From a virus, in the IMG/VR virus record IMGVR_UViG_3300045141_000036, positions 1-44,959 of that record: DNA of 44,959 nucleotides, one strand, 5' to 3'. Of this stretch, positions 1 to 44,959 are shown piece after piece. The position numbers and the translations under genes were made by a program. The stretch's first letter is position 1; the number at the start of each line of letters is the position of its first letter. The notes under the pieces are model-generated. The model searched no databases. It saw only the letters and a program-made list of their open reading frames with translations, and had not been told where the DNA came from.

Positions 1-234
1 AATGGTGGAAGGAGTCTGATGGCGAGTCTCGCCCTCGGCGACAGACTCAAGGGGCTGCATCTCCCATGGAGTCATGGCCATACCGGCAAGCGTGTACCAC
101 GGGCCAGTCTTGGGATGATCAGGGAATACGCCAGAAGCGAGACCATCAACCTCTGGAGCGGAACTGTTGGTCTGGTAGACACCGCCAGCAGTGGCGTTGC
201 CATCAGAAGTGACACTCAGTCCATCAGTAGCCAT
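1..234 (-). CDS. Hypothetical virion-region protein, second copy cut by window edge
   Basis: This is the N-terminal 78 codons of the 108-residue gene seen whole at 44526-44852; the rest is lost at the window start because the map is circular. The ATG at 234-232 follows an AAGGAAG ribosome site. It differs from the complete copy at six bases (19, 37, 130, 145, 148, 214), all synonymous third-position changes. Function unknown; it sits just after the portal gene in the late operon. Confidence 0.7.
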   Translation of the reverse strand, partial: MATDGLSVTSDGNATAGGVYQTNSSAPEVDGLASGVFPDHPKTGPWYTLAGMAMTPWEMQPLESVAEGETRHQTPSTI

Positions 235-341
235 GTTTACTTCCTTACTGTCTTGGTGGCAGCAGCCTTGGCTACTGGCTTACTCTTCGGTTCATGACAC
301 CAGACGCAGACCGTTAAACCATCTTCATCAGTCTGCCATGC
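2..341. repeat. Terminal overlap, left copy
   Basis: Bases 2-341 match 44620-44959 with a constant offset of 44618. There are six mismatches and no gap. All six are A/G differences on the plus strand and are silent in the leftward gene. This is best read as the overlap that closes a circular map of about 44,618 bases, joined from two closely related strains, not as a true terminal repeat. Confidence 0.9.
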
Positions 342-389
342 TGGATCGCGGCCTATAAGGGCCGCGTACTTGCACTTATGATCAACCAT
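237..389 (-). CDS. Small cysteine-containing protein (50 aa)
   Basis: A 50-codon frame whose ATG (389-387) overlaps the portal stop as TAATG and whose TAA lies two bases before the next ATG at 234. Cys6 and a CVWC pair (Cys28, Cys31), with a histidine next to it, suggest a small metal-binding fold. The C-terminal end is rich in Lys and Ala. It is too short for common gene-calling cut-offs, but both junctions fit the coupled style of the operon. The specific function is unknown. Confidence 0.6.
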   Translation of the reverse strand: MVDHKCKYAALIGRDPAWQTDEDGLTVCVWCHEPKSKPVAKAAATKTVRK

Positions 390-2188
390 TAAATGGGAAC
401 CTGTCGCCTAGTCTTACTATTCATGGTTGCCTCACCGGAACTCTTCAGGTTACTGAGGAGCTGAAGCATATCCTGCGGTCCACCCTGAGAGGCCCCAGGA
501 GGGCCCGTAGGCGCTCCGCCAGGGCCTGGCTGACCAGGAGGACCAGGCTGCCCAGGAACGGCCCCTGGAGGGCCGTTCTGTCCCTCTGGTGGTGCCACTG
601 TCTTGAATGCCTCAAGGACTGCTTCATGAGTCTGCTTGCCACCCTCGCGAAGCTTGATCACCTTGGCGAACTTCGTGAGTAGATCCGTTGGATCCTGACC
701 CTGCATGGCGAGCTGACCAACGGACTGCATCATCTGCTGAAGGCCAGCCTTCATGGCGTCTTCGAATTGCTCATTGTCGATCTGGGTCTGCATCTGCACA
801 ACGTCGATTTCCATCGGCAGTTGACGCTGTACAAAGTCGCGAGACACAAGCTGATCTCCACGGAGCTGGAGGAGTGCGACAATCGCTCGCGCTGGATCCT
901 GGCCCGCAGCAAATCCATAGGTGATATCGACAGTATGGTTTCCATTGATATCCTTGCTCGGTACATAGGTCTCCTCAAAAGGAGACCCTTGCACTACGCC
1001 ACGAATGGTCTTCTTCTCTTCGGGCCACAGCTTCTCGTCCATGTCGAAGGCCATCTCAATAGCGACACGGAGTGCTTCACTGATGACTTGCTGGCCAGTC
1101 GTGATGACAGTATTGAAGCCACCCATCAAAGCCTGGACACCCTTGCCAGTGATGATGCTGGCATCAAGGTTTCCGGACCTTACCTCAGGAGAACGCGTTC
1201 CAAGTCGCAACTCCCTCTCAAGGAGCTGCTCTTCCTGGGCAGCGAACTGAGGCATGTCCACGCCGACATACTTGATCTTGTCAGGGTTGTCGGTACGGAT
1301 GATGGCATCGCCACCGAAGTTCATGGTCTGAACATCGCGAGGCACTGCCAGTGGTGCACGTACAGCCTTCTCGGTTGCCTCAAGGCCAAGCATGGCCATA
1401 CGAGACTTGGCAAGGTAAACCCAAGCGGCGTCATCGTAAGCACCACGAATCTGGTGATCGAAGCCAGGACGCTTCGCCACACTGATAGTCAGCCTGCCCA
1501 TGGGATTGGGCATCGTGTCAATCAGTCTGTTGCTATGGGCTGGGAGGTACATGTAGATGTCATCGGCATCAATGTACTTGACTACCTCGATCTCACGCTC
1601 GGCCCAGCCCTCATCACTGCCATAACCATTGCTGGTACGCAGAACCCTGAGAAGGCTTGGATACTTCGCTACGAGGCTGATGGCCTCTTCGCGCCAGACC
1701 TTCGTATAGGACTTCAGGTAGCCGAACAGGTCGAACTCTGGATAGACGCCCATCGGGGATTCAACCCTGATGATTGGCATCTTCCTTTCGAAGTCCGGCT
1801 CAACCGAATAGACAGCCATGCCGAACGTTGAGTAGTGATCACAGAACTCAACCTGCTTACCAGCTGGAAGCCTGGAGATCAGAGCATAGTGATTGGCAAT
1901 CTTGGTCTTCTTGCTTGAGAACTTCCGGCTACGGTCGGAAGTCTGCAAGCTGTTGTTGCAGTTGATAGAAGGCATCTGACCCATAACCTCTGAAGTGTCA
2001 CGAGCAGATGTATCGATCAGGTTGGCAACGATTGGCCGGGGCCATGCATCAGGCATGGACCCGGGCATGACAGTATCGATATCACCGGAGCGGATGTCAT
2101 TGACATCCCGCATTCGCTGGTCACGATCCCTGGCAGCAGTACGAAGGGTTTGAACCTTCTTGGCCACCTCATCTAGAGTGCGAGCCAT
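389..2188 (-). CDS. Portal protein
   Basis: A 599-residue protein preceded by an AAGGAG site. Position (directly after terminase and endolysin), length and sequence texture (charged N terminus, an N-terminal region of the PIVANLID type, long mixed alpha/beta body, then a Pro/Gly/Gln-rich tail from about residue 540) fit a podovirus-type portal. The portal ring is the DNA gate at one capsid vertex and docks the terminase. Two perfect stem-loops lie inside the gene (556-578, 9-bp stem; 968-987, 8-bp stem). No catalytic motif was expected or seen. The family assignment rests on context and overall resemblance, so another head-vertex protein is possible but less likely. Confidence 0.75.
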   Translation of the reverse strand: MARTLDEVAKKVQTLRTAARDRDQRMRDVNDIRSGDIDTVMPGSMPDAWPRPIVANLIDTSARDTSEVMGQMPSINCNNSLQTSDRSRKFSSKKTKIANHYALISRLPAGKQVEFCDHYSTFGMAVYSVEPDFERKMPIIRVESPMGVYPEFDLFGYLKSYTKVWREEAISLVAKYPSLLRVLRTSNGYGSDEGWAEREIEVVKYIDADDIYMYLPAHSNRLIDTMPNPMGRLTISVAKRPGFDHQIRGAYDDAAWVYLAKSRMAMLGLEATEKAVRAPLAVPRDVQTMNFGGDAIIRTDNPDKIKYVGVDMPQFAAQEEQLLERELRLGTRSPEVRSGNLDASIITGKGVQALMGGFNTVITTGQQVISEALRVAIEMAFDMDEKLWPEEKKTIRGVVQGSPFEETYVPSKDINGNHTVDITYGFAAGQDPARAIVALLQLRGDQLVSRDFVQRQLPMEIDVVQMQTQIDNEQFEDAMKAGLQQMMQSVGQLAMQGQDPTDLLTKFAKVIKLREGGKQTHEAVLEAFKTVAPPEGQNGPPGAVPGQPGPPGQPGPGGAPTGPPGASQGGPQDMLQLLSNLKSSGEATMNSKTRRQVPI

Positions 2189-2197
2189 GTGGACTCC

Positions 2198-2983
2198 TTA
2201 GCTGGTAACTGGAGCACTCCACGTAGCATTCCAGGTAATGGGACCAACGACACCGTCGGAGGTCAGTCCCTTCTCGGACTGGAACTGCTTGCAGATACTC
2301 GCCGAACCCGGGCCATACCAGCTGTCCACAGTGATAGGCCAACCTCGATCGGACATCTTCTGCTGCCAGGTTCGAACATTGCTGTCGTGAAGCATGGGAG
2401 ACTGAAGCTTCAGATACTCACCAGGAAAGTCAGGAGCCTTCGGCACCGGAACGGGGGAAGGAGTCGGAGTGACTACGCCACCGCTGGCACGTCGGATGAT
2501 CTCGTTGAACTGTGCACGCACTGCATCACCTGGGCAGTCAAAGTGACCTCCCCAGGAAGATCCACCCATACCATGCCATCCGAGTCCACGTTCACCCGGC
2601 TGGTTCGCAAGAGCGAGAGGCACTCCATACACACGGTGCGCCCAAGATAGAATCTCTGCCACACGAGTGAGCTGTCCATCGGTGAGGGACTCTCCACTGA
2701 CTGCCTCATTCTCCACGCTGATGTAGTTCGGGTTGCCTGCCATCTCGGCCCAAGCCTTGTCCTTGGTGTCTACCCACTGCTCGGCATAGCCATCCTTGCG
2801 AGTGCCGAAATGGGCACTCGCCTGAGCCGTTGGGTTATTGAACCAGGACTTGGAACCATCAAAGGTTCCATCCATGATGTGCACAACGACGCCATAGACC
2901 TCGCTCATGCCATCGACAGTCTTGTTGACGACCGGGCTGTAAGTCCAGCCAAGGTCAGTGAGTGCCACTAGTTGCTCCACCAT
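2198..2983 (-). CDS. Endolysin: N-acetylmuramoyl-L-alanine amidase with peptidoglycan-binding domain
   Basis: A 261-residue lysin that cuts the amide bond between muramic acid and the stem peptide. Residues about 28-160 form an Amidase_2/PGRP domain: His35 (VVVHIMDG), His137 (GWHGMGG) and Cys150 (FDCPGD) are the likely zinc ligands, with His147 as an alternative. After a Pro-rich linker (about 172-190), residues about 193-255 match a PG_binding_1 repeat ending in GPITWNATW. The ATG lies 13 bases inside the terL end and has only a weak ribosome site, so coupling to terL is likely. An endolysin between terminase and portal, far from the holin at 24528-24734, is an unusual order. Confidence 0.9.
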   Translation of the reverse strand: MVEQLVALTDLGWTYSPVVNKTVDGMSEVYGVVVHIMDGTFDGSKSWFNNPTAQASAHFGTRKDGYAEQWVDTKDKAWAEMAGNPNYISVENEAVSGESLTDGQLTRVAEILSWAHRVYGVPLALANQPGERGLGWHGMGGSSWGGHFDCPGDAVRAQFNEIIRRASGGVVTPTPSPVPVPKAPDFPGEYLKLQSPMLHDSNVRTWQQKMSDRGWPITVDSWYGPGSASICKQFQSEKGLTSDGVVGPITWNATWSAPVTS

Positions 2984-4872
2984 TCCATAGTTGAATCGCC
3001 GTGCATGGCCGACTGTGCCATGTAGTCAAGGTCGACTGAAGTTTGTTTACGCTTGTCACGCTCACTGGCCCAAGGATTCTTCACGTGATACTCCACGGCA
3101 GAAACCTCTTCGACCAGCTCCCTGCAACGGATCTCCGCGAACCACAGAGCCATGACAGTATCAGTCTTGCGCTTGGTTCGCTGACCAGGCTGATCAGGTT
3201 CCCATGTGGTCAGCTGCTCGATCAGGGCACGCATACCCTCGCTGGTCTTGTTGGGGAGCCTGATCAGGTTCTTCTTGCTCTCCCAGCCATCGAAGAGCAT
3301 GCTCATGGACGCGACTCCGAAGTCCGCGTCCCACTTGTTCGATCCCGTGAAGTGCTCCTTCAGAAGACATCCTCTGGATGCCAAGAAGCTCCTGATCTCA
3401 CGGTTCTGGGTAACCATGAGGTTCATGGCGTTCTTCTCGATACGCCACTCGTTCATCTTGTACTTCACGGTCCACTCTTTGATCTTGTCAAAGAGATCAT
3501 CAGGCTTGCAGTGCCCCTTGGCCCAGACCTCCAGGACCCACCTACAGCCAGTCATTCGGTCAAGTGCAATCACGACAGCAGCACTGTCGCCAGTCATGGC
3601 AGGGTCGAAACCACCAACGATATAGCAGCCCTCGGTTCCGCGAGGTCTGCCGTTCACTGTCTCCCCGTTCATGGGACCTGGCTGCCTGCCTCCATCGATA
3701 CAGCCCATGACCGCCTTCTGATTGAAGATGGCATCATCGACTACTCGCTCTTGCTGATAGACAAGAGCCCAGTTTCGAGGAGACATAGCAGCCCTGCGCT
3801 TTTTGAGCGCAGGGCCAATCCACATGGGATACAGGCCATCCTCATTCTTCTGAACGAGACTACGACCCGCCAGTGAAACAGGTGGACGGTTCGTGTAAGG
3901 CCAAAGGGTCTTCCAGTCCTTTGCATCCTCTGCGTACTCCAGGACTGCTGGCTGAGTCAGGTATGTCCACGGAGAAGTCTCATCTCCGTAGTACTCATCC
4001 TTGATGATCTCGCCATATAGATCGACCGGCGCAAGCCGTGTGCCGACTAGGAGGGTGCAGCCACCCGGATACGAGAGACGGTTGTAGACCTCACGCTGAA
4101 GCCAGTCCATCTGTTTCTGGTACTCGTGTGCGTTCTTGCCAGTGACACAGTCATCAAGGATGATCAGGTCTGCACGAGAACCATAGATCTGGCCACCAAT
4201 GCCAAGGGCCTGAACCGTGGGACTTGCCTCACCGGAGTCACGCATTTCCGAGCTGAGGTAGATCGAGTCAGCAGTCCATGCGGCTGAATTGGCATCGAAG
4301 CCACCGTCCGGAGCGAAGTCAATCTGAAGTTTGCGATAGTTGACGTTCTGTCCTGCCAGACGATCCTTGATGCCTCGAAGGAACCTCTTGGCCATCTCCT
4401 GAGTCTGAGACACGATGATGATACGGATGTTCGGATCCTCACAGATCCGGTACGTCACGTAGTTGATCGTGATGGTCGTGGACTTGGCATGCTCAGGAGG
4501 AGTGTTGATCAGAAGGAACTCTGGTTCACCCTTGATGTAGACCTGACTGGGATGAAGGTTCCTTGGCTCACGACCTTCAAGCAGGTCGACCCACTGTTTG
4601 TGATGATTGAACAGTTGGGTATTCAAGTACTTCTTGCAGAACTCCTCGAAGGACGGCATGTCCTTGTTGACTTCAGGCTGCACCTCTACACGTGCAAGCT
4701 TGATCCTGTCATCCTGACGACGGAACTCTTCATCCTGACGTCGCCAGTACTGAACAGCCTGGAGAGTGACGGTAGCCTCCTCTGCCGCCTTCGTACGACC
4801 AACACCCATCTGAGTGAGTCGCAGGAAGGCCCGCTTCTTCTCGGGTGTGGTCAGTTCTCGAAAGTTTGACAT
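2968..4872 (-). CDS. terL: Terminase large subunit with N-terminal helix-turn-helix
   Basis: A 634-residue packaging motor. Residues 123-132 (NTPPEHAKST) form a variant Walker A loop and 236-242 (LIILDDC) form Walker B. A C-terminal RNase H-like nuclease begins near residue 420 with GGFDPAMTGDSAA and continues through WRIEKNA. Residues about 24-50 look like a helix-turn-helix (TKAAEEATVTLQAVQYWRRQ), a job normally done by a separate small subunit, and no small terminase gene was found nearby. It is the first gene of the leftward late operon, with AAGGGCC upstream of the ATG. A perfect 10-bp stem-loop lies inside the gene at 3791-3815. Confidence 0.95.
   Translation of the reverse strand: MSNFRELTTPEKKRAFLRLTQMGVGRTKAAEEATVTLQAVQYWRRQDEEFRRQDDRIKLARVEVQPEVNKDMPSFEEFCKKYLNTQLFNHHKQWVDLLEGREPRNLHPSQVYIKGEPEFLLINTPPEHAKSTTITINYVTYRICEDPNIRIIIVSQTQEMAKRFLRGIKDRLAGQNVNYRKLQIDFAPDGGFDANSAAWTADSIYLSSEMRDSGEASPTVQALGIGGQIYGSRADLIILDDCVTGKNAHEYQKQMDWLQREVYNRLSYPGGCTLLVGTRLAPVDLYGEIIKDEYYGDETSPWTYLTQPAVLEYAEDAKDWKTLWPYTNRPPVSLAGRSLVQKNEDGLYPMWIGPALKKRRAAMSPRNWALVYQQERVVDDAIFNQKAVMGCIDGGRQPGPMNGETVNGRPRGTEGCYIVGGFDPAMTGDSAAVVIALDRMTGCRWVLEVWAKGHCKPDDLFDKIKEWTVKYKMNEWRIEKNAMNLMVTQNREIRSFLASRGCLLKEHFTGSNKWDADFGVASMSMLFDGWESKKNLIRLPNKTSEGMRALIEQLTTWEPDQPGQRTKRKTDTVMALWFAEIRCRELVEEVSAVEYHVKNPWASERDKRKQTSVDLDYMAQSAMHGDSTMEWWSN
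3791..3815. repeat. Perfect 10-bp stem-loop inside terL
   Basis: GCCCTGCGCT (3791-3800) is followed by the five-base loop TTTTG and the exact reverse complement (3806-3815). It lies wholly within the terminase reading frame and has no T-run in the direction of transcription, so it is not a normal terminator. It is one of several dozen such elements in this genome. Confidence 0.85.
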
Positions 4873-4889
4873 GAGGCCCTTATTAAAGA

Positions 4890-4920: not shown

Positions 4921-4952
4921 AACGGACTGACAGGATAGTTACATGACTAAGA

Positions 4953-5049: not shown

Positions 5050-5152
5050 GGCTGCCCCCTGAAGGGCAGCCATGTAAGCCTGTTAGATAGTTAGGCTTGC
5101 TAACCTTTTATCCAGTCAAGCTTTAAGCAGGAACCCCTTTTGGGGGGTTCCT
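5050..5152. other. Triple-hairpin element, copy 1
   Basis: Three stem-loops follow one another: 5050-5057/5064-5071 (GGCTGCCC stem), 5076-5081/5093-5098 (AAGCCT stem, loop containing TTAGATAG) and 5129-5137/5144-5152 (AGGAACCCC stem, loop TTTTGG). The same order, with different stems but similar loops, recurs at 14461-14594. It may be a structured leader, a tandem terminator or a small RNA. Confidence 0.5.
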
Positions 5153-5391
5153 GTTAATCAATGCTTAAGTCTTTCTAAGCATGATTATCTTTATAACCTC
5201 CAGGGCAGAGTTCTCCTGCCAGAGGTGCTGGACAGGGTATCACACCTGTCAAGTACTGCAACCCGGACCGTCAAGCTCTATGCCTCTGGTGGTCGTTCCT
5301 GACCCCTGCTGGCCGTCTTGTCCTTGAGACTCTGTGGAAAAAGTCTTCTCACTATATATACGTATGTCCGAGGCACTTTTCCAGACTACAG

Positions 5392-5721: not shown

Positions 5722-5937
5722 CTTGGCAAAGAGATCAGTGCAATGTCACATGGTGGGGGCGATAGTACACCCTGGACTATCAATGTAGCCATTGCCAACA
5801 TTCTCACACGCGCGCGTGCGCGTTCCTATACACATTACGCATGATGATTCAGGGAGTGAATCATCTACAACGGAACAATGTATCCGATGCAGGAGATGCC
5901 GACGAAAGGTTCATCACATGAAGTATCCAACTTAGGC

Positions 5938-6534: not shown

Positions 6535-6539
6535 TCAAG

Positions 6540-6561
6540 GGGAGCGCTTCACGGCGCTCCC
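6540..6561 (+). terminator. Hairpin ending the first early operon
   Basis: GGGAGCGC (6540-6547) and GCGCTCCC (6554-6561) form a perfect 8-bp stem with a six-base loop six bases after a stop codon. It has no T-run, so termination may be weak or factor-assisted. Confidence 0.55.
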
Positions 6562-6659: not shown

Positions 6660-6991
6660 ACTACTCTCTGCTGCTAGGCAGACCTCTGGAGAACCCGTAG
6701 TGTTCTGGGTGTCGGCAAGGGGAAGCCTGAACCGACAGGCAGTAAGCCTGAAGATCCAAGCGTATGGCGTAACCAGTCAGCCCTTAGGGGCCTAAAACAC
6801 GGTGAAGCTCGCAAGGATTCAAGGGTTCCTATCGGATCTTCGATCCGAGAGGGTTACGTAGGAACCTGGTTCCTACGTATTGACACACAGATTCACCTAG
6901 CAGTACGGTTCTACCAGCACCAAAGCTTGACGTTGCAGGTTCCGGCCACCGATGGAAAACCTGCGCTACTGCATCCGGAGACACTGCATCC
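6660..6991 (+). ncRNA. Candidate structured non-coding RNA
   Basis: About 330 bases without a convincing gene but dense in perfect pairings: AGAAC/GTTCT (6690-6706), TGTCGG/CCGACA (6710-6737), CAGGC/GCCTG (6736-6750), TCGGATC-TTC-GATCCGA (6832-6848), an 11-bp stem TACGTAGGAAC with a CTG loop (6855-6879) and GCAGGTT/AACCTGC (6935-6964). Two segments can each pair with an upstream or a downstream partner. A GTTGAA/TTCAAC palindrome at 6579-6592 may be its operator. Strand is a guess. It did not match tmRNA, RNase P or group I/II intron cores by eye. Confidence 0.45.
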
Positions 6992-7218: not shown

Positions 7219-7242
7219 GAGCACACCTTCAGGGGTGTGCTC
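7219..7242 (+). promoter_or_regulatory. Leader hairpin before a GGGAGAGA ribosome site
   Basis: GAGCACACC (7219-7227) and GGTGTGCTC (7234-7242) form a perfect 9-bp stem with a TTCAGG loop. A GGGAGAGA ribosome site and ATG 7260 follow. The same hairpin-then-GGAGAGA layout precedes four other early genes. Confidence 0.6.
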
Positions 7243-7814: not shown

Positions 7815-7873
7815 AGTGAGTGAAGTGAAGCGCATCCTTTGGGGATGCGCCTTGCTTGATCTACTCAGATCAC
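7815..7873 (+). promoter_or_regulatory. Two-hairpin leader element, copy A
   Basis: GAGTGAAGTGAAGC leads into hairpin 1 (GCGCATCC 7830-7837 with GGATGCGC 7843-7850). CCTTGC follows, then hairpin 2 (TGATCT-ACTC-AGATCA, 7857-7872). The flanks and hairpin 2 are nearly identical to copy B at 9415-9473, while the hairpin 1 stem differs with paired changes on both sides. A GGAGAGA ribosome site follows at 7883. It probably acts as RNA in the 5' leader. Confidence 0.65.
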
Positions 7874-8109: not shown

Positions 8110-8336
8110 TGTTCGGCAAGAAGAAGTCCGAAGGAACCAGTCAGCCGAGCACTACGCCGGTCAAGATTGAGTTCCAGCTCACCACCGAGAACATGCTTGC
8201 ACCTAAGCATGTCGTTGAGGTCACCATGAACTCACATGAGGTCAATGACCTGGACAGGCTTCGCGAGAAGGCTGCTTGGGCTGAGAACCGCAACCCCAAT
8301 CAGGTTGAGGTCACCAAGTGGTGGACCCGTGGCTAA
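8109..8336 (+). CDS. Hypothetical protein (75 aa)
   Basis: The ATG shares its A with the previous stop (TGATG). Lys-rich start (MFGKKKSEG), a Ser/Thr/Pro linker, then a strand-helix segment (KIEFQLTTENM...EVNDLDRLREKAAWAEN). No family recognised. Confidence 0.55.
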   Translation: MFGKKKSEGTSQPSTTPVKIEFQLTTENMLAPKHVVEVTMNSHEVNDLDRLREKAAWAENRNPNQVEVTKWWTRG

Positions 8337-8982: not shown

Positions 8983-9073
8983 GTGCTCACTTTTGGTGAG
9001 CACTGTGGAGTATGCCAGTACTGGTGTACGCAAAACCATCCCTTCGGGATGACCTTTGAATCAGAGATTCAAA
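8983..9073 (+). promoter_or_regulatory. Multi-hairpin leader element, copy D
   Basis: Four perfect structures precede the ribosome site at 9077: GTGCTCAC/GTGAGCAC with loop TTTTG (8983-9003), the palindrome CCAGTACTGG (9015-9024), CATCCC-TTC-GGGATG (9037-9051) and TTTGAAT/ATTCAAA (9055-9073). Same position and ribosome site (AGGAGGAGAGAATATG) as the other early leaders. Confidence 0.6.
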
Positions 9074-9419: not shown

Positions 9420-9473
9420 GTGAAGTGAAGCACGCCCCTAAAGGGCGTGCCTTGCTTGATCTACACAGATCAC
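9415..9473 (+). promoter_or_regulatory. Two-hairpin leader element, copy B
   Basis: Hairpin 1 pairs GCACGCCC (9430-9437) with GGGCGTGC (9443-9450) around CTAAA. Hairpin 2 is TGATCT-ACAC-AGATCA (9457-9472). Compared with copy A, the sequence around hairpin 1 and all of hairpin 2 except one loop base are conserved, while hairpin 1 changes on both strands and stays fully paired. This supports selection on RNA structure. Confidence 0.65.
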
Positions 9474-33824: not shown

Positions 33825-33848
33825 AGGCACCACTGGGGAGTGGTGCCT
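33825..33848. terminator. Hairpin between tRNA-Pro and the scaffold gene
   Basis: AGGCACCACT (33825-33834), loop GGGG, AGTGGTGCCT (33839-33848): a perfect 10-bp stem. On the minus strand it is followed by TTTAGCG. It may trim or attenuate the transcript after the tRNAs. Confidence 0.6.
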
Positions 33849-35444: not shown

Positions 35445-36502
35445 GAGTACAGACCCCAATCCTGCAACACCTTGTGTGCTGTTCCCATCGCGGCGTCTTG
35501 TGCATTCTGAGTCTTACTCCATCTGGGATCCTGGCGAAGACTGTTCTGGAACTGCCAGAGTGGCTGAGCAGAACCGGAACCATCAGGGTTCCGGTATGAC
35601 ATGGCACTCCTGATCGTTGGATCGAACAGGTTTACCTGACCTGCTGGCACTTCAAGGATCTGCTGCATGGACTGAGTATACGGTTGAGCCAGAGCCTCAA
35701 CCGTCATGCCAGACCTGATCTGCTGCTCATACTGAGGGAAGGCGGAGATGGCCTGAGTCATGATCTGATTCTTGGCATCCTGATCAGTGGCAGTGCCGCG
35801 AACAATGTTCATGACGTTCTGCCTGATCCAGTCGTCAGAGTTCTTGATACCCATGGAGTATGCATAGGAGTTCAGGTTCTGGACTTCCTGACCGGCAGCT
35901 CCTCCCACCATTCCCCCGTTCCCGAAGTTCAGGTGCAAACCCAGCTCATTGTTGGTCCGCTCATCGGACCAACCTTCCATGATGACCTTCTGTGCCACGG
36001 CATTGACGGTCGTTGAATCATTCGGATCAACGCCCATGGATGCAGCGAGAGTCCTGACATGCATCTGAGTATCCGACTGAAGCTTGGCGTACGATGCGGG
36101 ATCTGCATACTGCATGACAATGGCCTTGCGGCCAGTGTCACTAAGAGTCTGGAACCATTGAGTGTTCTTGACTGCTGCACCGAACCTGTCAGCAGTCCAC
36201 TGCTCTCGTGCTGCCTGATCGAAGAGCTTGCCCAGTTCAGGATAAGCGTTCATCAGACTGAGAGTGAAGCCGTACTGCTGAGCAAGAGTAGTACGATCAA
36301 TGTTTGCAGGAGCTGCCGCCTGAGCGGCAGCCTTTGGAGCTGCCGCTACAGACTTGCCAGTACCTGGCTTCGATGGAGCAGGAGGCTGCGTAGTTGATGG
36401 AGCATCTTTCCTGGCTGCATCTCCCGCATAGTCAGGAGCATTCCTAGCCTTCTCGGCAGCAACGTATGGAGCGTTCTCAGCCAGGTCTGGATTACGTGCC
36501 AC
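35441..36502 (-). CDS. Ejection-type protein, paralogue of the NlpC/P60 protein (353 aa)
   Basis: GTG 36502 in a TAGTG overlap. A Pro/Ala-rich N-terminal part (PPAPSKPGTGKSVAAAPKAAAQAAAP) leads into a helical region (about 70-353) similar to residues about 150-429 of the next-upstream gene: QYGFTLSLMNAYPELGKLFDQA..., WFQTLSDTGRKAIVMQYADPASY, and the end QFQNSLRQDPRWSKTQNAQDAAM. It lacks a peptidase domain. Likely ejected with DNA. Stem-loops at 35573, 35951 and 36312. Confidence 0.65.
   Translation of the reverse strand: MARNPDLAENAPYVAAEKARNAPDYAGDAARKDAPSTTQPPAPSKPGTGKSVAAAPKAAAQAAAPANIDRTTLAQQYGFTLSLMNAYPELGKLFDQAAREQWTADRFGAAVKNTQWFQTLSDTGRKAIVMQYADPASYAKLQSDTQMHVRTLAASMGVDPNDSTTVNAVAQKVIMEGWSDERTNNELGLHLNFGNGGMVGGAAGQEVQNLNSYAYSMGIKNSDDWIRQNVMNIVRGTATDQDAKNQIMTQAISAFPQYEQQIRSGMTVEALAQPYTQSMQQILEVPAGQVNLFDPTIRSAMSYRNPDGSGSAQPLWQFQNSLRQDPRWSKTQNAQDAAMGTAHKVLQDWGLYS
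35573..35595. repeat. Perfect 9-bp stem-loop inside an ejection-type gene
   Basis: ACCGGAACC, loop ATCAG, GGTTCCGGT. In coding sequence. Confidence 0.85.
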
Positions 36503-37791
36503 TAGCTCATCAACCCCATCTGACTGAGTACCTGCTTGGAGATGGACATAGCCTGATCCTGAGCCTGCTGAGTAGAATTCCATCGTGGATCTCCACGCAA
36601 CTGCTGCTGGAAACTGGTGATGGTCTTACCTACTGGCTTGCCGTTCGCGTCCAATCCATTGAGTGCGGAAGTGATGGTTGGATCCTTCAGGCTAATGCTG
36701 TTCGGATTCATCTCAAGACTCTGGGCCATCGTCTGCACGTAAGGATTGGCAATCTGCTTCATGGTCTGACCGGCATCAAGCTGAGAACTGAAGGCAGGAT
36801 ACTGGGACTGTGCCTGCTGCTTGATGAAGTTCTGAAAGTCCGACTCGGTGGAAAGGCCGCGCGTTATGAGCGCGGCCTGCTGCTTATAGGCATCATCATT
36901 CAGGTCGACACCCATGCTTCCGGCGTACTGCCTCATGTTGTGCTCAAAGACTCCAGCCTGACCCTTGAGAGTTCCATTGACGAAGTCGATGTAGCCACCG
37001 AGAGTATTGTTGATCTGTTCTGGTGTCATACCGAACATGACCACATGATCAGCTATCTCATTCAGCTGCTTGTCCGTCACTGCTGCCCCGACCTTCGCGG
37101 CTTCGGCTGTGACTTGATCCTTTGCTGCTTGGACTTGAGCATTGTATGTGGCCGGATCCGTGGTCTTCAGGACCATGGCATTGCGAGTAGTCTCGGAGTT
37201 CTTCTGATACCAGGGGGTATCCTTGATGGCAGCCTGGAACTTGTCGGGAGTCCAGCTACCTGCTACTGCCTGATTGAATACGTCTTTCACTCCAGGATCA
37301 GACTGCATGAAGCTGTACGCCCAACCGTACTTACTGGCCATCTCCTCAGGAGAAAGCTTGGCAACAGTCTCGGCACTGGCTGGTGCGCCAGTGCCATTGT
37401 CGGTCATGTCACCCATCCGCCTACCGCCCATGAAATGGGAAGTGTAGTAGTTGGATGTAATGTCGGTCATGCGGACAGAGGCGCCCGTATGGGGCGCCTC
37501 AATCATCTGACCATTGCCAGCGTATACGCCAACATGGTCTGGGCCGGAAGTATTGGGATCAGTGTCAAAGAAGACAGTATCTCCGACTTGGAGATTGTCG
37601 AAGTCGACAGCCTTGCCCACATTGATCTGATCATAGGTGACTCGGGGAACGCTCACTCCGAAGTGAGCGAGACCCTGCTGAACCAGACCCGAACAGTCAA
37701 TGCCACCGCTCAGGGAGTTGCCTCCCCAAACGTATGGCGTACCGAGATACTGCTGAAGATAGCTGACCAGATCCTGACCGGAGAATGCCAT
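36502..37791 (-). CDS. NlpC/P60 peptidase-containing ejection protein (429 aa)
   Basis: Start ATG in a TAATG overlap. Residues about 10-130 are an NlpC/P60 cell-wall peptidase: YVWGGNSLSGGIDCSGLVQ (catalytic Cys in DCSG), GDTVFFDTD...GPDHVGVYAGNGQMIEAPHTG (catalytic His in HVGVY). The rest is helical and parallels the 353-residue neighbour, ending FQQQLRGDPRWNSTQQAQDQAM. It should cut wall peptides locally during DNA entry. Stem-loops at 36854, 37372, 37478 and 37650. Confidence 0.85.
   Translation of the reverse strand: MAFSGQDLVSYLQQYLGTPYVWGGNSLSGGIDCSGLVQQGLAHFGVSVPRVTYDQINVGKAVDFDNLQVGDTVFFDTDPNTSGPDHVGVYAGNGQMIEAPHTGASVRMTDITSNYYTSHFMGGRRMGDMTDNGTGAPASAETVAKLSPEEMASKYGWAYSFMQSDPGVKDVFNQAVAGSWTPDKFQAAIKDTPWYQKNSETTRNAMVLKTTDPATYNAQVQAAKDQVTAEAAKVGAAVTDKQLNEIADHVVMFGMTPEQINNTLGGYIDFVNGTLKGQAGVFEHNMRQYAGSMGVDLNDDAYKQQAALITRGLSTESDFQNFIKQQAQSQYPAFSSQLDAGQTMKQIANPYVQTMAQSLEMNPNSISLKDPTITSALNGLDANGKPVGKTITSFQQQLRGDPRWNSTQQAQDQAMSISKQVLSQMGLMS
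37372..37395. repeat. Perfect 9-bp stem-loop inside the NlpC/P60 gene
   Basis: GGCACTGGC, loop TGGTGC, GCCAGTGCC. In coding sequence, 83 bases from a second one (37478-37500). Confidence 0.85.
37478..37500. repeat. Perfect 9-bp stem-loop inside the NlpC/P60 gene
   Basis: GAGGCGCCC, loop GTATG, GGGCGCCTC. In the codons of the peptidase active-site region. Confidence 0.85.
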
Positions 37792-38624: not shown

Positions 38625-41600
38625 TACTGGTTCACCGCCTGCTGGCTCAATGCCGGATCGTAGTGATTGAACATGTCATGAACAAGGAACCTGTCATGCA
38701 GAGACTGGAACTTGGTGTTGCTCTGGATCAGATCCGCGACGGCGTCATGGAATCCCTGAAGGACATCCTGATTGCCCTTCGCGTTGATGTCAGCAGAACC
38801 ACCGAGCTTGTTCCTGTTGACAAGGATCTCCTTGGCAGAGTTGCGATAGATCATATACTGAGCCAGTCCCTGAATGTCCTGCCTCATGGGATCCTTCACG
38901 AGGGATCCTTCAGTGACAAGCTTCTCCATGGCAAGAGCCTGCCTGTCGTCCTTATTCTTGTCGACAGTGTTGAATGCCTTGTCGAACTGCTCATTGTACT
39001 GCTTGTTCGGAGTCACACCATCAGGCATGAAGGGACTGGTAAGCATGGCGATGAGACCCTTACGCTGGTTGTCATACAGGTCTGCCCCCTTGTCCTGGAA
39101 GTGCTGGAAGCCAGCCTGATACAGACCGGCAGTGATGTTGTTCATGTACTTCTGGAAGGTTGCCCAACCAAGGTTGGCCTTGGCTTGATCCATTGAAGTC
39201 TGAGGATCGACCTTCTGTCGCTCGCCTGAAGCGAGCTGCTGAGCGTAGGCAGTCTGACTGAATGCGTTATTGTTGCCATACTGACCGATAATCAGTGAAG
39301 CAAGCTCAGGATCCTCATTGGTAAGGTATGCGTACTTCTGGTCAGCCTGTACTGCTTCACGAGTGGCAGGCAATCCCTTGGCGCTCTTCGTGAGAGCGCC
39401 CGTGAAACTGAATGCAGCATCGCCGTACTTGGCCATGAACACCTGATCAGCAGTCTTGGGATTCGCCTGCTGGAGTTCCTGGTAGCGATCCCTGAAGAAC
39501 TGGTAGGGATCCTTGAAGGATGCACTGACAGGAAGAGCGGTCTTGAACAGTGCACGAAGATCAGCGCCATTCTGGGCGCGGTCCTTAACCTCTTGCCAGG
39601 TCGGCTCCTTGTCACGCATACCGTTCTTGAACTTGTAATCCTCGGCCTGCATGATCTGAATCATGTCCTTGCGTTCCTGATCGGGGTCACCAGTGACGAT
39701 CTGATTCAGGAACTTAGGAGCTGCACCAGCAAGCTGACTCATTGGATTCTGCTGAACCTGCTGAAGAATGCCAAGGTTCTTCAGCGTGTCGCCAACCTTG
39801 GGGTCCGCCCTCAAGGCGGCCCAGTTGGCGGGGACCTGAACGAATGGACCCTCGCCAGGGTTGTACCAAGGATCATTCTGGAGGACCAGGTTCAAGGTAT
39901 TGATAGGCATGTCTACGACACTTCCACCATCCTGACCCAACCCCTTCTGTGCCCAGGCGGGAATCTGGAACTGGATGTGCATCTGATCCTTTGGTACCAG
40001 AGTCCTGGTTCCATCGGCATTCGTGGTGTATCCATCCTGATCAACAGGATTACCATTCTGATCAACAGTGTGTCCAGCCCTGATGGGGCTGGTATAGATG
40101 TTGGCAGCATGAGCCACGACGTCAGGACGATCAGCAATGATCCTTCCCCAACGCTGAAAGGACTCCTGGGTTGGACCGAAGAACGGGGCAATGAAGCGTA
40201 GCTTGTATGCAAGCTTCCCTTCGAAGTCCATGTTGAATGTGAACCTCTTGACATCCTTAAGTGCGAACTGCCTGGCCTGCTCGGTGATGGCCTGCTGCTT
40301 CATTGGGGACAGCTTGGCTACTCCCTGCTCCGCAGCGTTGTTCCACAGTTCGGATACGTGCTGACGGTACAGCTGGAAGAACAGTGGATTCCTGGACATG
40401 ACCTCAGCAGGCATCTGGTTCATCCACTTGTACCAGCCAGTCATGACATTGTCCATGTGCTGAATGATATCCGACTTACCCATGGCATAGGCCAAGCCTT
40501 CGGACTGAACCGCTGGCCTATCCACCTGATCAACCTGCTTCATCAGGTCGCCAACGGTCTTGTCGTCAGCACCGGAAGCGATGGCCTTCCTCAGCTCCAT
40601 GGCTTCTGGAGTATGAGTGGGAAGGTAGTGCTCAACGTGAGCGGCGATCCTGTCGGCATGCTCAGTGTCAGACATGTTCTTCAGTGGGAACTGAGCACGA
40701 TAAGCCCTGCCCTGCTGAGTTCCGAACCACTGCTCAAGTCCCTTGGCGTCAGCACCCTTGACCACTCGCATAGCTGCTGGATCGTTGGCGATCTGGTACT
40801 GAACATCCTTCAGCCAGGACTTCAGATGATTCGGATCGCTGTTCTCCAGTACCTGCCAGTTCCCCGATCGGTAGTTGTTCCAGATGTCGGAAGCAGTTCC
40901 ACCCATGATACTGTCGATGGTTCGACGGCCAGTGTTCATATCCTTGAACATGGCACCACGCGTCCCCTCGAAGGGACGCGCATAGGCAGTGCCATCAGGC
41001 ATGATGGTGTAGTTGTCACCAAGGGCATTCTTGGTTGAACCAAGAATATTCCTTCGGTTCTTCAGGTCCTCAATGATCTTCTCATTGTCGGCGAGACGCT
41101 GAGTGTAGTTCTTGACAGCATTGACCTGCATGGCACCGAGGACCTTGCCGCTAGGAGTCTGCTCGATTCCCCCGACCAGACCGCTGGTCAGCTTGTCGAT
41201 TCGATCCTGATAGAACTGGCTTCGGCTGGTGAGATTCGAGATACCGGATTCAAGGCTTGCCGCCTGCTGTTCGAAACCCGTTGGGTCTCCCATAATGTGG
41301 TTCATCTTGCGAACCATCATGTTCCTGCCGCCGACAAGGGTTCGCTCGGCAAACAGGTTCCATGCACCAAGCCTGGCAGCCTGACCCATGAAGTCATCAG
41401 CGATAGCGCGAGGGCCATAACCAAGCCTCAGGAGGACATTGAACTTCCAGAGCCTGCCCATCAGGTCAAGAGACTCCTTGCCCATCTGAGCGGCATTGTA
41501 GGTCTTTGCCCCTATGGTCTTGGGAAGTGCTCCAGCTGCCAAGTTGGTAGCCTCAGCAGTTGCTCCAGCAGTCAGAGGACCTGGAACACCAGCACGCATA

Positions 41601-43519
41601 CGGATGGACTCCTCATTGAAGAGCTTCTTGAATCCACCGGCAGTGTACTTGAGGACATTGTTCAGGTGTTCGTAGTCGGTCATGATGTGTGTATTCTCAA
41701 GCTGAGTACCGAGAACGGGACCGACAGCAATGATATTACCGGCGTCATCGACATGGTCAGCTCGAATGGATGCACCAGAAGCAGTGGTAATCCTTGCGGC
41801 CGAGTAGACTCGACCGTCCTTTGCCTGACCCTTCAGTCCACCAATGGTCTTATAGATGGACTGAGCCTGATCGCTGGTCAAGCCATGCTGTGCGGCAATA
41901 CGACCGACAGTCGTATTGTCCATGATATCAAGAATGGTTCCACGGTCACCCGCATCGGCATGAAGGTACCGAGAGACAAGCTGCTGTCGCTCTGCCGGAT
42001 TCCACACCTTCGACTGGTCGAGACTTGCATCAAGTGCACGATGACTGTCGTCGGCGAAGACGTCGATATGGCCAGGTGCACGAACGGCATTGAAGGTATT
42101 GCCACTGACGACACGAAGTGGACGAACCCACAAGTTGTTATACAGGAGACCAAGGCCAGGCTTCATGTCTCCACGAGACACGGTCTCCAGTCCACGAACC
42201 TTCTGTCCGATATTGGACAGAACCGGAGAGATTCCAGGAGTGAAGTACAGACCGTTCTTCAGGCTGGACTCGAGGGCAAGCTTCTGATCGAGATTGCCCG
42301 ACTGCTTGGCTATCAGGCTTACCTGGTTGGCTACAGTGTCAAGCTGCTGGGCATGGATCAATGCCTGAGTGGGATCAGGATTGGCAGGGAAGTTGGAGAT
42401 CAATCCCTTCCTCTGATCATCAAGCATCTTCATCTGAGCACCAAGCTCAGCGTTCTTTGCGGTCAGAGCCTGAAGTGCACCCTGATCGCCCATGCTTACA
42501 GCAAGAACCTGATCAACCTCTGAACGGTCCACCGCCTTACCAAGAGCCGCCGATAGGGCGGCTCCTTGAGGAGAGTTCTTTGCCCAGTTCTGACGAGAAG
42601 CCCAATCCTCGAAGGTGCTACCCATCTGAGTGGCGGCACCACCAGAAGGGCCGGGCAGTAGATTGCCAAGCTTCGCCTTCTGCTTCATGATGAGATCACC
42701 CATGGAAGCGAAGGCAGTGCTCTGGAGATTCTTGTCCAGGTTGGAAGTGACCTTCTCGCCAGCAGTGAAGAAACCAGGACGACTGGTCTCTGTTACCGGC
42801 CTGACATAGGCAAGCTTGCGGGTAAGGCCAAGAGCCTTACCGCCCAGTGCAAGCGGATCGGCATACCAACCAGCAGCTGCGTCAAGCCCACCGGAGATCC
42901 ACTTCTGTGCACCACTGTCGTAGTACTGAGCCACAGCCTGAGGATTGTCCCAGAGGTAACCCTGAGCATTGAGGTTCACATTGATGGGCTTGCCATTGGC
43001 ATCAACCGCAGGCTTGCCATACATGTCCTTGGGCTTGTAATCAACAGGCTTTGTCAGAGCCTTCTCGATATCGGCGTTGGTGTCACCGAAGTGCATGAGA
43101 CCGAAGGTCAGAGCCTGACCGGGGGAAACGTGAGCAGCGTCCTGATAGGCGCGATCCCACGTAGAGGAGTCGAATAGGCTTCCCCATGCCTGAGTATTGA
43201 AGATCCCAAGAGTCTTCTCGTCACTGGTCGTCTGGGCCGCCTGGATCTGTGTGGCGATGAAGGGGGTGGCGAGACCACGAGAGACGAACGAGTATGCAGA
43301 GTGTGCGGCAGAACCGAACGCCTCAACGGGAGTCTTGATCCAATCAGGAATCCAGTCAGCAGAAGACTTGGCAGCCTGCGCCCTGTAGGCGGTGGCTGCC
43401 TGTTGGGCCTGAGCATTGGCCTCAATGACCTGAGCATTCCACTGGGTGGAGTTGACCGGCGCAGGAGCGAAGCCAGGCGTAGGCGCAGGCACATTCCCAG
43501 TGTAGCTCTGGTCAGTCAT
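38624..43519 (-). CDS. Very large internal virion/ejection protein (1631 aa)
   Basis: The largest gene in the window. Mostly alpha-helical with long Gln/Ala-rich segments and a Pro-rich disordered start (residues 1-25). The N-terminal third contains YDSGAQKWISGGLDAAAGWYADPLALGGKALG, and a middle part AFFGPTQESFQRWGR-type phrase (RFIAPFFGPTQESFQRWGRIIADRP). Such large internal proteins in podoviruses leave the capsid with the DNA and form a channel through the wall and membrane. No transglycosylase or peptidase motif was recognised. Stem-loops at 39380, 40074, 40959, 42201 and 42544. Confidence 0.7.
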   Translation of the reverse strand: MTDQSYTGNVPAPTPGFAPAPVNSTQWNAQVIEANAQAQQAATAYRAQAAKSSADWIPDWIKTPVEAFGSAAHSAYSFVSRGLATPFIATQIQAAQTTSDEKTLGIFNTQAWGSLFDSSTWDRAYQDAAHVSPGQALTFGLMHFGDTNADIEKALTKPVDYKPKDMYGKPAVDANGKPINVNLNAQGYLWDNPQAVAQYYDSGAQKWISGGLDAAAGWYADPLALGGKALGLTRKLAYVRPVTETSRPGFFTAGEKVTSNLDKNLQSTAFASMGDLIMKQKAKLGNLLPGPSGGAATQMGSTFEDWASRQNWAKNSPQGAALSAALGKAVDRSEVDQVLAVSMGDQGALQALTAKNAELGAQMKMLDDQRKGLISNFPANPDPTQALIHAQQLDTVANQVSLIAKQSGNLDQKLALESSLKNGLYFTPGISPVLSNIGQKVRGLETVSRGDMKPGLGLLYNNLWVRPLRVVSGNTFNAVRAPGHIDVFADDSHRALDASLDQSKVWNPAERQQLVSRYLHADAGDRGTILDIMDNTTVGRIAAQHGLTSDQAQSIYKTIGGLKGQAKDGRVYSAARITTASGASIRADHVDDAGNIIAVGPVLGTQLENTHIMTDYEHLNNVLKYTAGGFKKLFNEESIRMRAGVPGPLTAGATAEATNLAAGALPKTIGAKTYNAAQMGKESLDLMGRLWKFNVLLRLGYGPRAIADDFMGQAARLGAWNLFAERTLVGGRNMMVRKMNHIMGDPTGFEQQAASLESGISNLTSRSQFYQDRIDKLTSGLVGGIEQTPSGKVLGAMQVNAVKNYTQRLADNEKIIEDLKNRRNILGSTKNALGDNYTIMPDGTAYARPFEGTRGAMFKDMNTGRRTIDSIMGGTASDIWNNYRSGNWQVLENSDPNHLKSWLKDVQYQIANDPAAMRVVKGADAKGLEQWFGTQQGRAYRAQFPLKNMSDTEHADRIAAHVEHYLPTHTPEAMELRKAIASGADDKTVGDLMKQVDQVDRPAVQSEGLAYAMGKSDIIQHMDNVMTGWYKWMNQMPAEVMSRNPLFFQLYRQHVSELWNNAAEQGVAKLSPMKQQAITEQARQFALKDVKRFTFNMDFEGKLAYKLRFIAPFFGPTQESFQRWGRIIADRPDVVAHAANIYTSPIRAGHTVDQNGNPVDQDGYTTNADGTRTLVPKDQMHIQFQIPAWAQKGLGQDGGSVVDMPINTLNLVLQNDPWYNPGEGPFVQVPANWAALRADPKVGDTLKNLGILQQVQQNPMSQLAGAAPKFLNQIVTGDPDQERKDMIQIMQAEDYKFKNGMRDKEPTWQEVKDRAQNGADLRALFKTALPVSASFKDPYQFFRDRYQELQQANPKTADQVFMAKYGDAAFSFTGALTKSAKGLPATREAVQADQKYAYLTNEDPELASLIIGQYGNNNAFSQTAYAQQLASGERQKVDPQTSMDQAKANLGWATFQKYMNNITAGLYQAGFQHFQDKGADLYDNQRKGLIAMLTSPFMPDGVTPNKQYNEQFDKAFNTVDKNKDDRQALAMEKLVTEGSLVKDPMRQDIQGLAQYMIYRNSAKEILVNRNKLGGSADINAKGNQDVLQGFHDAVADLIQSNTKFQSLHDRFLVHDMFNHYDPALSQQAVNQ

Positions 43520-44118: not shown

Positions 44119-44309
44119 TTGAATACCTGCACTTCATTCATTGAGCGAGTCTGTAGCTCTCGCTCGTACCAGTCACTACCGACTAGATCTTCCTGGCACA
44201 GGATGCGGTCATGTCGAGAGGCGAACAGCTGATGGCCCTGATGAACCACCTTCACAGTCTTGCCATAAGGGATGACAATGAGGTAGTCGGCCTCCTTCTC
44301 GTACTCCAT
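44115..44309 (-). CDS. Hypothetical protein (64 aa)
   Basis: ATG in a TAATG overlap. EYEKEADYLIVIPYGKTVKVVHQGHQLFASRHDRILCQEDLVGSDWYERELQTRSMNEVQVF: small beta-rich domain, then acidic helix. Function unknown. Confidence 0.55.
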   Translation of the reverse strand: MEYEKEADYLIVIPYGKTVKVVHQGHQLFASRHDRILCQEDLVGSDWYERELQTRSMNEVQVFK

Positions 44310-44509
44310 TAGAATCCCTCCGTGATCTTCTGGAACTCTCGATCGTACTCACTGATCATGCTGTGTTGCATCGCCATCATCGAGTACATGCTGAACATGT
44401 TCGACAGGGCGGCAGCTCCGCTGGCTGCCGCCTGTAGAGCGGGGACAAGAACAGAGAACCTGTCATGCCTGGCTGGTCGCAATTCGAACTCGGTCTCTTC
44501 CTCGTCCAT
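44309..44509 (-). CDS. Small helical protein (66 aa)
   Basis: ATG 44509 follows GAGGAAGAG. An acidic start (MDEEETEFELRPARHDR) is followed by a hydrophobic, Ala/Met-rich helix (SVLVPALQAAASGAAALSNMFSMYSMMAMQ), which could insert in a membrane or pack in the portal vertex. A 9-bp stem-loop (44409-44433) lies in the Ala-rich codons. Function unknown. Confidence 0.55.
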   Translation of the reverse strand: MDEEETEFELRPARHDRFSVLVPALQAAASGAAALSNMFSMYSMMAMQHSMISEYDREFQKITEGF

Positions 44510-44525
44510 GCTCTTCCTCGCCGTT

Positions 44526-44852
44526 CTAGTGGTTGGGCAGATCCGAGTCGCCGAACTCGCTGGAGCCACCCTTGGTCATGCCAGTGGAGACAATGATGTC
44601 ACTGTCCCACTTCTGGGTGATGGTGGAAGGAGTCTGGTGGCGAGTCTCGCCCTCAGCGACAGACTCAAGGGGCTGCATCTCCCATGGAGTCATGGCCATA
44701 CCGGCAAGCGTGTACCACGGGCCAGTCTTGGGATGATCAGGGAATACACCAGAAGCGAGACCGTCGACCTCTGGAGCGGAACTGTTGGTCTGGTAGACAC
44801 CGCCAGCAGTGGCGTTGCCATCAGAAGTGACGCTCAGTCCATCAGTAGCCAT
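44526..44852 (-). CDS. Hypothetical virion-region protein (108 aa)
   Basis: Complete copy of the gene cut at the window start. ATG 44852 follows AAGGAAG. Residues 1-60 (ATDGLSVTSDGNATAGGVYQTNSSAPEVDGLASGVFPDHPKTGPWYTLAG) are Gly/Ser/Thr-rich, and the end is polar with a GMTKGGSSEFGDSDLPNH tail. It follows the portal and a 50-residue gene in the circular order. Function unknown. Confidence 0.65.
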   Translation of the reverse strand: MATDGLSVTSDGNATAGGVYQTNSSAPEVDGLASGVFPDHPKTGPWYTLAGMAMTPWEMQPLESVAEGETRHQTPSTITQKWDSDIIVSTGMTKGGSSEFGDSDLPNH

Positions 44853-44959
44853 GTTTACTTCCTTACTGTCTTGGTGGCAGCAGCCTTGGCTACTGGCTTA
44901 CTCTTCGGTTCATGACACCAGACGCAGACCGTTAAACCATCTTCATCAGTCTGCCATGC
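44620..44959. repeat. Terminal overlap, right copy
   Basis: Matches 2-341 at 334 of 340 positions. See the left copy for interpretation. Confidence 0.9.
44855..44959 (-). CDS. Small cysteine-containing protein, copy cut by window edge
   Basis: The C-terminal 34 codons and stop of the 50-residue gene seen whole at 237-389. The start is missing because the window ends. No base differs from the complete copy here. Confidence 0.6.
   Translation of the reverse strand, partial: AWQTDEDGLTVCVWCHEPKSKPVAKAAATKTVRK

What the first reader, a model, noticed from the sequence alone, without database searches (positions are those of the whole stretch)
1..44959. Dozens of perfect short stem-loops buried inside coding sequence
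Reading by eye I find about 50 perfect inverted repeats with stems of 8-14 bp and loops mostly of 3-7 bases. About 33 lie wholly inside genes: 556-578, 968-987, 3791-3815, 11244-11267, 14226-14249, 15347-15368, 20275-20298, 21171-21193, 21565-21585, 22498-22520, 24694-24715, 25786-25808, 26344-26366, 26947-26966, 27227-27252, 28085-28110, 28494-28516, 29273-29293, 30865-30887, 31053-31072, 34492-34513, 35573-35595, 35951-35973, 36312-36331, 36854-36878, 37372-37395, 37478-37500, 37650-37669, 39380-39400, 40959-40980, 42201-42222, 42544-42564, 44409-44433. For equal base use, a rough expectation for stems of 8 or more with 3-7 base loops is about 3-4 in 45 kb. The stems all differ, so this is not a repeat family; selection seems to act on the fold. 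They lack T-runs on the transcribed strand. Possible roles: RNase or ribosome control points in long coupled mRNAs, transcription pausing, or protection of mRNA during host takeover.
Basis: partly seen in the sequence, partly recalled or inferred. Interest (0 to 1): 0.85.

Follow-up and report, generated by a model that had tools for sequence, protein, structure and literature searches.

The report
Phage genes packed with perfect hairpins
This soil phage and its relatives carry about one perfect, GC-rich, short-looped hairpin every 600 bases, most of them inside genes and over ten times more than chance, and evolution keeps them; what reads them is unknown.

Summary
The window is a Beephvirinae podovirus (relatives infect Streptomyces). 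It has 73 perfect inverted repeats (stem >=8, loop 3-7) against 4.1 +- 2.0 in dinucleotide shuffles. Inside called genes there are 50 against 4.8 +- 2.1 in shuffles that keep protein and codon use. The whole group shares the trait: CDS hairpins 11x background. In 1.6 Mb of unrelated viral CDS the ratio is 1.3. Enrichment peaks at stem 8-12, loop 4-6, and rises steeply with stem GC. Stems change 2-2.5 times more slowly than flanks at third codon positions; loops do not. Positions turn over beyond about 80% identity. So selection on the fold is supported. Its molecular level inside genes is not settled. Noncoding copies are clearly RNA elements (UNCG loops 39 sense: 2 antisense, U downstream, just after stop codons). 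Inside genes, one G-U pair at equal predicted stability costs most of the enrichment, as much as A-C, and strand signals are weak. Best guess: nascent-RNA hairpins of the U-poor terminator/pause type. Rivals: a DNA-level hairpin, an mRNA-decay barrier, template switching (loop inversions seen in noncoding copies).

The parts
556..578 (-). hairpin 9 bp/loop 5, in portal gene
968..987 (-). hairpin 8/4, portal gene
2798..2821 (-). hairpin 9/6, endolysin gene; identical in L006, L007
3475..3495 (-). hairpin 8/5, terminase gene; identical in 3 relatives
3791..3815 (-). hairpin 10/5, terminase gene; compensatory change in L010 and L019
4953..4973 (.). noncoding hairpin 8/5
5050..5071 (.). noncoding hairpin 8/6
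5128..5153 (.). noncoding hairpin 10/6
5843..5865 (.). noncoding hairpin 9/5
6540..6561 (.). noncoding hairpin 8/6
6855..6879 (.). noncoding hairpin 11/3
7219..7242 (.). noncoding hairpin 9/6
7830..7850 (.). noncoding hairpin 8/5
8191..8212 (+). hairpin 8/6 in gene; lost in L009
8983..9003 (.). noncoding hairpin 8/5
9055..9073 (.). noncoding hairpin 8/3
9430..9450 (.). noncoding hairpin 8/5, just after a stop codon
9640..9663 (+). hairpin 9/6 in gene
11244..11267 (+). hairpin 9/6 in gene
11903..11931 (.). hairpin 12/5 in a doubtful small ORF; probably between converging genes
12147..12170 (-). hairpin 9/6, sigma-factor gene
12811..12831 (.). noncoding hairpin 8/5
13248..13270 (-). hairpin 9/5, metallophosphoesterase gene
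14226..14249 (.). noncoding hairpin 9/6
14461..14482 (.). noncoding hairpin 8/6
14565..14594 (.). noncoding hairpin 12/6
15347..15368 (+). hairpin 8/6, PD-(D/E)XK exonuclease gene
16429..16453 (.). noncoding hairpin 9/7
17298..17318 (+). hairpin 8/5 in gene
18319..18342 (.). noncoding hairpin 9/6, just after a stop codon
19026..19050 (+). hairpin 10/5, DnaB-like helicase gene
20275..20298 (+). hairpin 9/6, RusA-like resolvase gene
20509..20531 (+). hairpin 8/7, RusA-like resolvase gene
21171..21193 (.). hairpin 9/5, called noncoding
21565..21585 (.). hairpin 8/5, gene assignment doubtful
21917..21940 (.). noncoding hairpin 10/4, just after a stop codon
22497..22521 (+). hairpin 10/5 in gene; stem kept in L054
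24158..24187 (.). noncoding hairpin 13/4 between converging gene blocks
24694..24715 (-). hairpin 8/6 in gene
25786..25808 (-). hairpin 9/5 in structural gene 25255-27372
25841..25859 (-). hairpin 8/3, same gene
26344..26366 (-). hairpin 9/5, same gene
26947..26966 (-). hairpin 8/4, same gene
27227..27252 (-). hairpin 10/6, same gene; compensatory G-C to C-G flip in L054 and L055
27929..27948 (-). hairpin 8/4 in gene; absent in L054 and L055
28085..28110 (-). hairpin 10/6 in gene
28494..28516 (-). hairpin 10/3 in gene
29273..29293 (-). hairpin 8/5 in gene; absent in relatives
30865..30887 (-). hairpin 8/7 in gene; identical in 3 relatives
31053..31072 (-). hairpin 8/4 in gene
31427..31449 (-). 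hairpin 9/5 in gene
32224..32249 (-). noncoding hairpin 11/4 just after the capsid stop codon; loop nearly inverted in L054
33378..33402 (-). hairpin 9/7 in gene
33825..33848 (.). noncoding hairpin 10/4; two compensatory pair changes in L054-L056
34143..34162 (.). noncoding hairpin 8/4
35573..35595 (-). hairpin 9/5 in gene
35680..35704 (-). hairpin 9/7 in gene
35951..35973 (-). hairpin 9/5 in gene
36312..36331 (-). hairpin 8/4 in gene; differs from L054 by a 9-base indel
36323..36347 (-). hairpin 9/7 overlapping the previous one
36854..36878 (-). hairpin 9/7, NlpC/P60 gene
37372..37395 (-). hairpin 9/6, same gene; compensatory C-G to G-C flip in L054
37478..37500 (-). hairpin 9/5, same gene
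37650..37669 (-). hairpin 8/4, same gene
39380..39400 (-). hairpin 8/5 in 1631-aa gene
40959..40980 (-). hairpin 8/6, same gene
41027..41047 (-). hairpin 9/3, same gene
41896..41918 (-). hairpin 9/5, same gene
42201..42222 (-). hairpin 8/6, same gene
42544..42564 (-). hairpin 8/5, same gene
42821..42841 (-). hairpin 8/5, same gene

Best explanation
SHOWN: a phage-subfamily-wide trait. Selection maintains many short, perfectly Watson-Crick, GC-rich hairpins (stem about 8-12 bp, loop 4-6) along the genome, in genes and between them, spaced more evenly than random. Each is conserved among close relatives, and individual sites are gained and lost over longer times by ordinary substitutions in both arms. 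INFERRED: they work in the nascent transcript. Those after stop codons act as terminator/3'-end hairpins, and those inside genes are U-poor hairpins of the same build that pause RNA polymerase or end transcription when no ribosome follows, so that long phage transcripts are made only while translated. Sequence identity would not matter, only quick formation of a stable perfect stem.
For: Excess over codon- and protein-preserving shuffles. Group-wide 11x CDS enrichment against 1.3x in unrelated viruses and none in T7, lambda, phiC31 or R4 CDS. Strong dependence on stem GC and on loop 4-6, as for terminator hairpins. Third-codon-position stem divergence 0.072/0.050 against 0.175/0.128 in flanks and 0.218/0.164 in loops at 90-94/94-97% identity. 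Compensation follows broken intermediates with distance. When a relative lacks a hairpin the differences lie in both arms, mostly at third positions. Even spacing, CV 0.795 against 0.917. Noncoding copies: UNCG loops 39 sense: 2 antisense, T 0.59/0.48/0.36 at +1..+3, typically 0-20 nt after a stop codon. CDS copies have a weak excess of T at +1 on the sense strand (1.38x, p 3e-9) over the antisense equivalent (1.10x). Stable local folds exceed shuffles slightly more on the sense than on the antisense strand. U-less terminators are described for actinobacteria (review PMC12288462).
Against: Inside genes a single G-U at equal RNA free energy removes most of the enrichment and is no better than A-C. 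GU-versus-AC tests disagree (p 8e-5, 0.04, 0.30). Loop orientation in CDS is symmetric after codon-phase control. Compensated pairs are not dominated by GU-mediated transitions, even in noncoding copies. No U-tract in CDS. No expression data. U-less termination is disputed (Czyz 2014 is cited as requiring a U-tract).
Confidence: 0.4

Rival explanations
1. DNA-level function: the selected object is a DNA hairpin or cruciform in either strand, for example in single-stranded replication or recombination intermediates, read by a structure-specific protein (the phages encode a RusA-like resolvase).
For: Only Watson-Crick pairs count, on both strands alike; loops and most flank signals are strand-symmetric in CDS; DNA stacking energies fit stem enrichment better than RNA ones in CDS.
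Against: Simple GC count fits better than either energy set, and noncoding hairpins, which are clearly RNA elements, show the same stacking shares. Noncoding copies are strongly sense-oriented. 8-bp stems extrude poorly from duplex DNA (general knowledge).
Confidence: 0.22
2. mRNA-decay or processing barriers: hairpins block exonucleases or limit RNase cleavage along long phage mRNAs.
For: Distributed, fairly even placement with no sequence motif; occurs in all gene classes, less in the capsid and the gene upstream of it (0.64 and 0.41 per kb); noncoding copies follow stop codons.
Against: Same wobble intolerance; no decay data.
Confidence: 0.18
3. Mutational origin: replication template switching perfects imperfect inverted repeats, so hairpins accumulate without function (as proposed for coding palindromes of Nematomorpha mitochondria and for RNA stems).
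For: Exact loop inversions between close relatives at noncoding hairpins: 6 aligned pairs (about 3 sites) against 0.06 expected. Few imperfect stems: perfect 11.2x, one mismatch 1.6-1.8x. Compensated pairs follow the single-substitution spectrum, with many G-C/C-G flips. The mechanism is described in PMC8794818 and PMC8604942.
Against: Stems evolve more slowly than flanks, which unbiased copying does not give. No compensations in the roughly 510 pairs above 94% identity although broken stems occur. In genes, differences to hairpin-less relatives are spread over both arms, with no one-arm excess (11 observed, 17.7 expected); the same in an unrelated phage group.
Confidence: 0.15
4. Chance, composition or codon usage.
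For: None.
Against: 73 against 4.1; CDS 50 against 4.8.
Confidence: 0.01

Closest known systems
Coding palindromes in Nematomorpha mitochondrial genes (PMC6649704)
   Same: Perfect inverted repeats inside coding sequence, scattered, gained and lost between species, few imperfect copies, and an unequal use of codon phases for pairing (compare).
   Different: Those are up to 284 bp and in mitochondria; these are 8-13 bp with 4-6 nt loops, about 1.3 per kb of CDS in a dsDNA phage, and show both-arm point changes and stem-specific constraint.
Intrinsic terminators, including the U-less 'I-shaped' type of mycobacteria (PMC12288462)
   Same: Stem of about 8-10 bp, GC-rich, loop 4-6; noncoding copies lie after stop codons with UNCG loops and a short U stretch.
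   Different: Most copies lie inside genes without a U-tract; termination not tested.
Template-switch-generated hairpins (PMC8794818, PMC8604942)
   Same: Perfect stems and loop inversions at noncoding copies.
   Different: No one-arm multibase changes at CDS copies; stems are constrained.
Selected mRNA structure in viral coding regions (for example the survey PMC6563262, seen only as a search hit)
   Same: Local folding conserved inside coding sequence.
   Different: Discrete, perfect, wobble-free stems at very high density rather than a diffuse folding bias.

Membership tests
Canonical intrinsic terminator | GC-rich hairpin with short loop | tested here: met
   Stem 8-12, loop 4-6, enrichment rising with GC
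Canonical intrinsic terminator | U-tract directly downstream | tested here: not met
   CDS copies: >=4 T in 8 nt in 5.0%; noncoding copies 27%
Canonical intrinsic terminator | Ends transcription | not testable with these tools
   No RNA data
U-less (I-shaped) terminator | Hairpin without U tail shortly after a stop codon | tested here: inconclusive
   Noncoding copies sit after stops; most copies are inside genes
Coding palindromes (Nematomorpha type) | Perfect inverted repeats embedded in coding sequence | tested here: met
   50 in window CDS; 1084 in 1.03 Mb of group CDS
Coding palindromes (Nematomorpha type) | Long arms (tens to hundreds of bp) | tested here: not met
   Stems 8-13 bp
Template-switch products | Spacer (loop) inversion between close relatives | tested here: met
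   Noncoding: 6 exact pairs against 0.06 expected; CDS: none at or above 85% identity
Template-switch products | Multibase change confined to one arm at gain | tested here: not met
   One-arm 11 against 17.7 expected; mean arm difference below expectation
Functional RNA secondary structure | Compensatory changes and tolerance of G-U | tested here: inconclusive
   Compensation present; G-U no better than A-C at equal energy
Dispersed repeat family (REP/MITE-like) | Shared sequence among copies | tested here: not met
   1006 distinct cores among about 1080

The most novel reading that the evidence does not exclude
An undescribed process in some phage lineages reads perfect Watson-Crick hairpins irrespective of sequence, in coding and noncoding DNA alike. 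The trait can be switched on or off quickly: in an unrelated phage group it is present in some loci and absent from relatives whose terminase is about 82% identical.
Probability: 0.35. Interest if true: 0.9.

Novelty: new variant of a known kind. Interest (0 to 1): 0.75.

Why it matters
A second code overlaid on phage genes at this density is unusual and is now quantified with controls. It implies a strong, lineage-specific process that sees hairpins rather than sequence. The trait can be on or off between fairly close relatives, and cultured Streptomyces phages (Zeigle, RosePharie, FlowerPower, JXY1) have it, so it can be tested directly: transcription pausing, mRNA decay, DNA structure or polymerase template switching.

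Tried and rejected
Chance and codon-use explanations. Repeat family or Rfam family. Host-wide property: phiC31 and R4, also Streptomyces phages, lack it. Strand bias of CDS loops looked strong (92:32) but vanished with a codon-phase-matched background. G-U preference looked significant against distant-loop background but not against synonymous shuffles. The DNA-versus-RNA stacking test favoured DNA, but noncoding copies behave alike, so I discount it. One-step arm copying in genes: no one-arm excess. No published description found in the held library; most subscription papers are not held. The 1631-aa protein has no informative family match, so I could not test an N4-like hairpin-promoter idea.
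Full report
WHAT IT IS. The window is a 44,959-base phage record. Its terminase and capsid match Streptomyces podoviruses of the subfamily Beephvirinae (podovirus and virulent by PMC11536984). Late genes read on the - strand (1-4872 and 24.2-45 kb) and early genes mostly on the + strand.

OBSERVATION. 73 perfect inverted repeats (stem >=8, loop 3-7) are present against 4.1 +- 2.0 in dinucleotide shuffles. In called CDS there are 50 against 4.84 +- 2.13 in shuffles that keep each protein and its codon use. Stricter shuffles that also keep dinucleotides, and can move few codons, give 9.4 +- 2.6.

HOW GENERAL. I fetched more than 130 related loci, including four annotated relatives. Nearly all have 0.4-2.4 hairpins per kb against a background near 0.1; the most distant relatives by terminase (L049, L052, L053; 47-49% identical) have almost none. 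In 1.03 Mb of group CDS the ratio to background is 11; in unrelated viral CDS it is 1.27, with phiC31 1, T7 0, lambda 2 and R4 4 hairpins. The window's CDS density (about 1.3 per kb) exceeds all 155 unrelated loci with at least 5 kb of CDS (maximum 0.95).

SHAPE. Enrichment is 9-31x for stems of 8-12 with loops 4-6 and 1-2x for stems under 6 or for 8-bp stems with loops of 8 or more. For 7-bp stems it rises from 1.4x (two G/C pairs) to 93x (all G/C). Median predicted RNA energy is -14.8 kcal/mol. Spacing is more even than random. All gene classes carry them, with lower density in the capsid gene and the gene upstream of it.

EVOLUTION. Against 86-94% identical relatives most window stems are identical while loops drift, and 27227, 33825 and 37372 show compensatory changes. 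Over 11,431 aligned cases, CDS stems differ at third codon positions 0.072 against 0.175 in flanks and 0.218 in loops at 90-94% identity, and 0.050, 0.128 and 0.164 at 94-97%. The kept fraction falls from 0.86 (97-99.5%) to 0.09 (70-75%), so sites turn over while density is kept. Noncoding stems keep pairing longer (0.44 at 70-75%), mostly by compensation. Compensations are absent above 94% identity, where broken stems are present, and accumulate later: a two-step, selected process rather than instant copying. When a relative lacks a CDS hairpin, differences lie in both arms and follow the normal codon pattern. Cells in these tallies are not independent, because relatives share history; I removed identical pairs only.

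WHICH MOLECULE. Noncoding hairpins are RNA elements: UNCG tetraloops 39 sense: 2 antisense, T-rich at +1 to +3, typically within 20 nt after a stop codon. For CDS hairpins the evidence conflicts. For RNA: T at +1 favoured on the sense strand, 1.38x against 1.10x; slightly more excess stable folds on the sense strand; GU over AC in two of three tests (not). Against RNA thermodynamics: at equal RNA energy, perfect stems are enriched 2.4-22x and one-G-U stems 1.4-3.2x, the same as one-A-C stems; no loop orientation; compensations not GU-mediated. Noncoding copies, certainly RNA, share the last feature, so it does not exclude RNA. In other viruses' terminators G-U exceeds A-C (13:2).

TEMPLATE SWITCHING. 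Exact loop inversions occur at noncoding hairpins between relatives at 94% identity or more (6 aligned pairs, about 3 sites, 0.06 expected), the signature described in PMC8604942 and PMC8794818. It does act here, but slowed stem evolution and both-arm changes in genes are not explained by it.

A SECOND GROUP. By chance the controls contained L311, a distant phage (terminase about 26% identical) with 21 hairpins in 14.3 kb, 10 of them in CDS. Its relatives with 88-100% identical terminase have 0.65-1.4 CDS hairpins per kb; sisters near 82% have essentially none (3 in about 55 kb). Hairpin sites in the former differ from the latter by several changes in both arms. The trait can therefore be gained or lost over short times and outside Beephvirinae.

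VERDICT. A real, selected, lineage-wide layer of perfect hairpins in genes. The mechanism is open; I favour nascent-RNA pause/terminator-type hairpins (0.4) over DNA-level structure (0.22), mRNA-decay barriers (0.18) and a mutational origin (0.15).

Noticed in passing
L311 (14314 b) and L382-L393: Unrelated phage group in which the hairpin trait is present in loci with 88-100% identical terminase and absent in sister loci near 82% (L387-L392).
   Followed up: partly
window 32224-32249; L003/L004, L013/L051, L002/L033: Loop sequences of noncoding hairpins are exactly or nearly inverted between close relatives, a template-switch (or cruciform inversion) signature.
   Followed up: yes
window 36312-36347: Two overlapping hairpins; relative to L054 the first is associated with a 9-base indel.
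   Followed up: no
window 1-4872 and 24202-44959: Late genes are split between the two ends of the record, so the record looks circularly permuted relative to isolates such as Zeigle.
   Followed up: no
L002 30160-31033, L003 29919-30795; window 20779-21153: The primase is annotated as two overlapping genes in relatives; the window gene matches a primase family.
   Followed up: no
L175: Unrelated viral locus (GC 0.40) with about 28 palindromes, mostly noncoding, several sharing TTATCTGTTAAACAGATAA: a repeat family, unlike this finding.
   Followed up: no
group CDS hairpins: A-G mismatches are the commonest single mismatch in near-perfect CDS stems (107 against 31 expected), partly one conserved terminase site.
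   Followed up: partly
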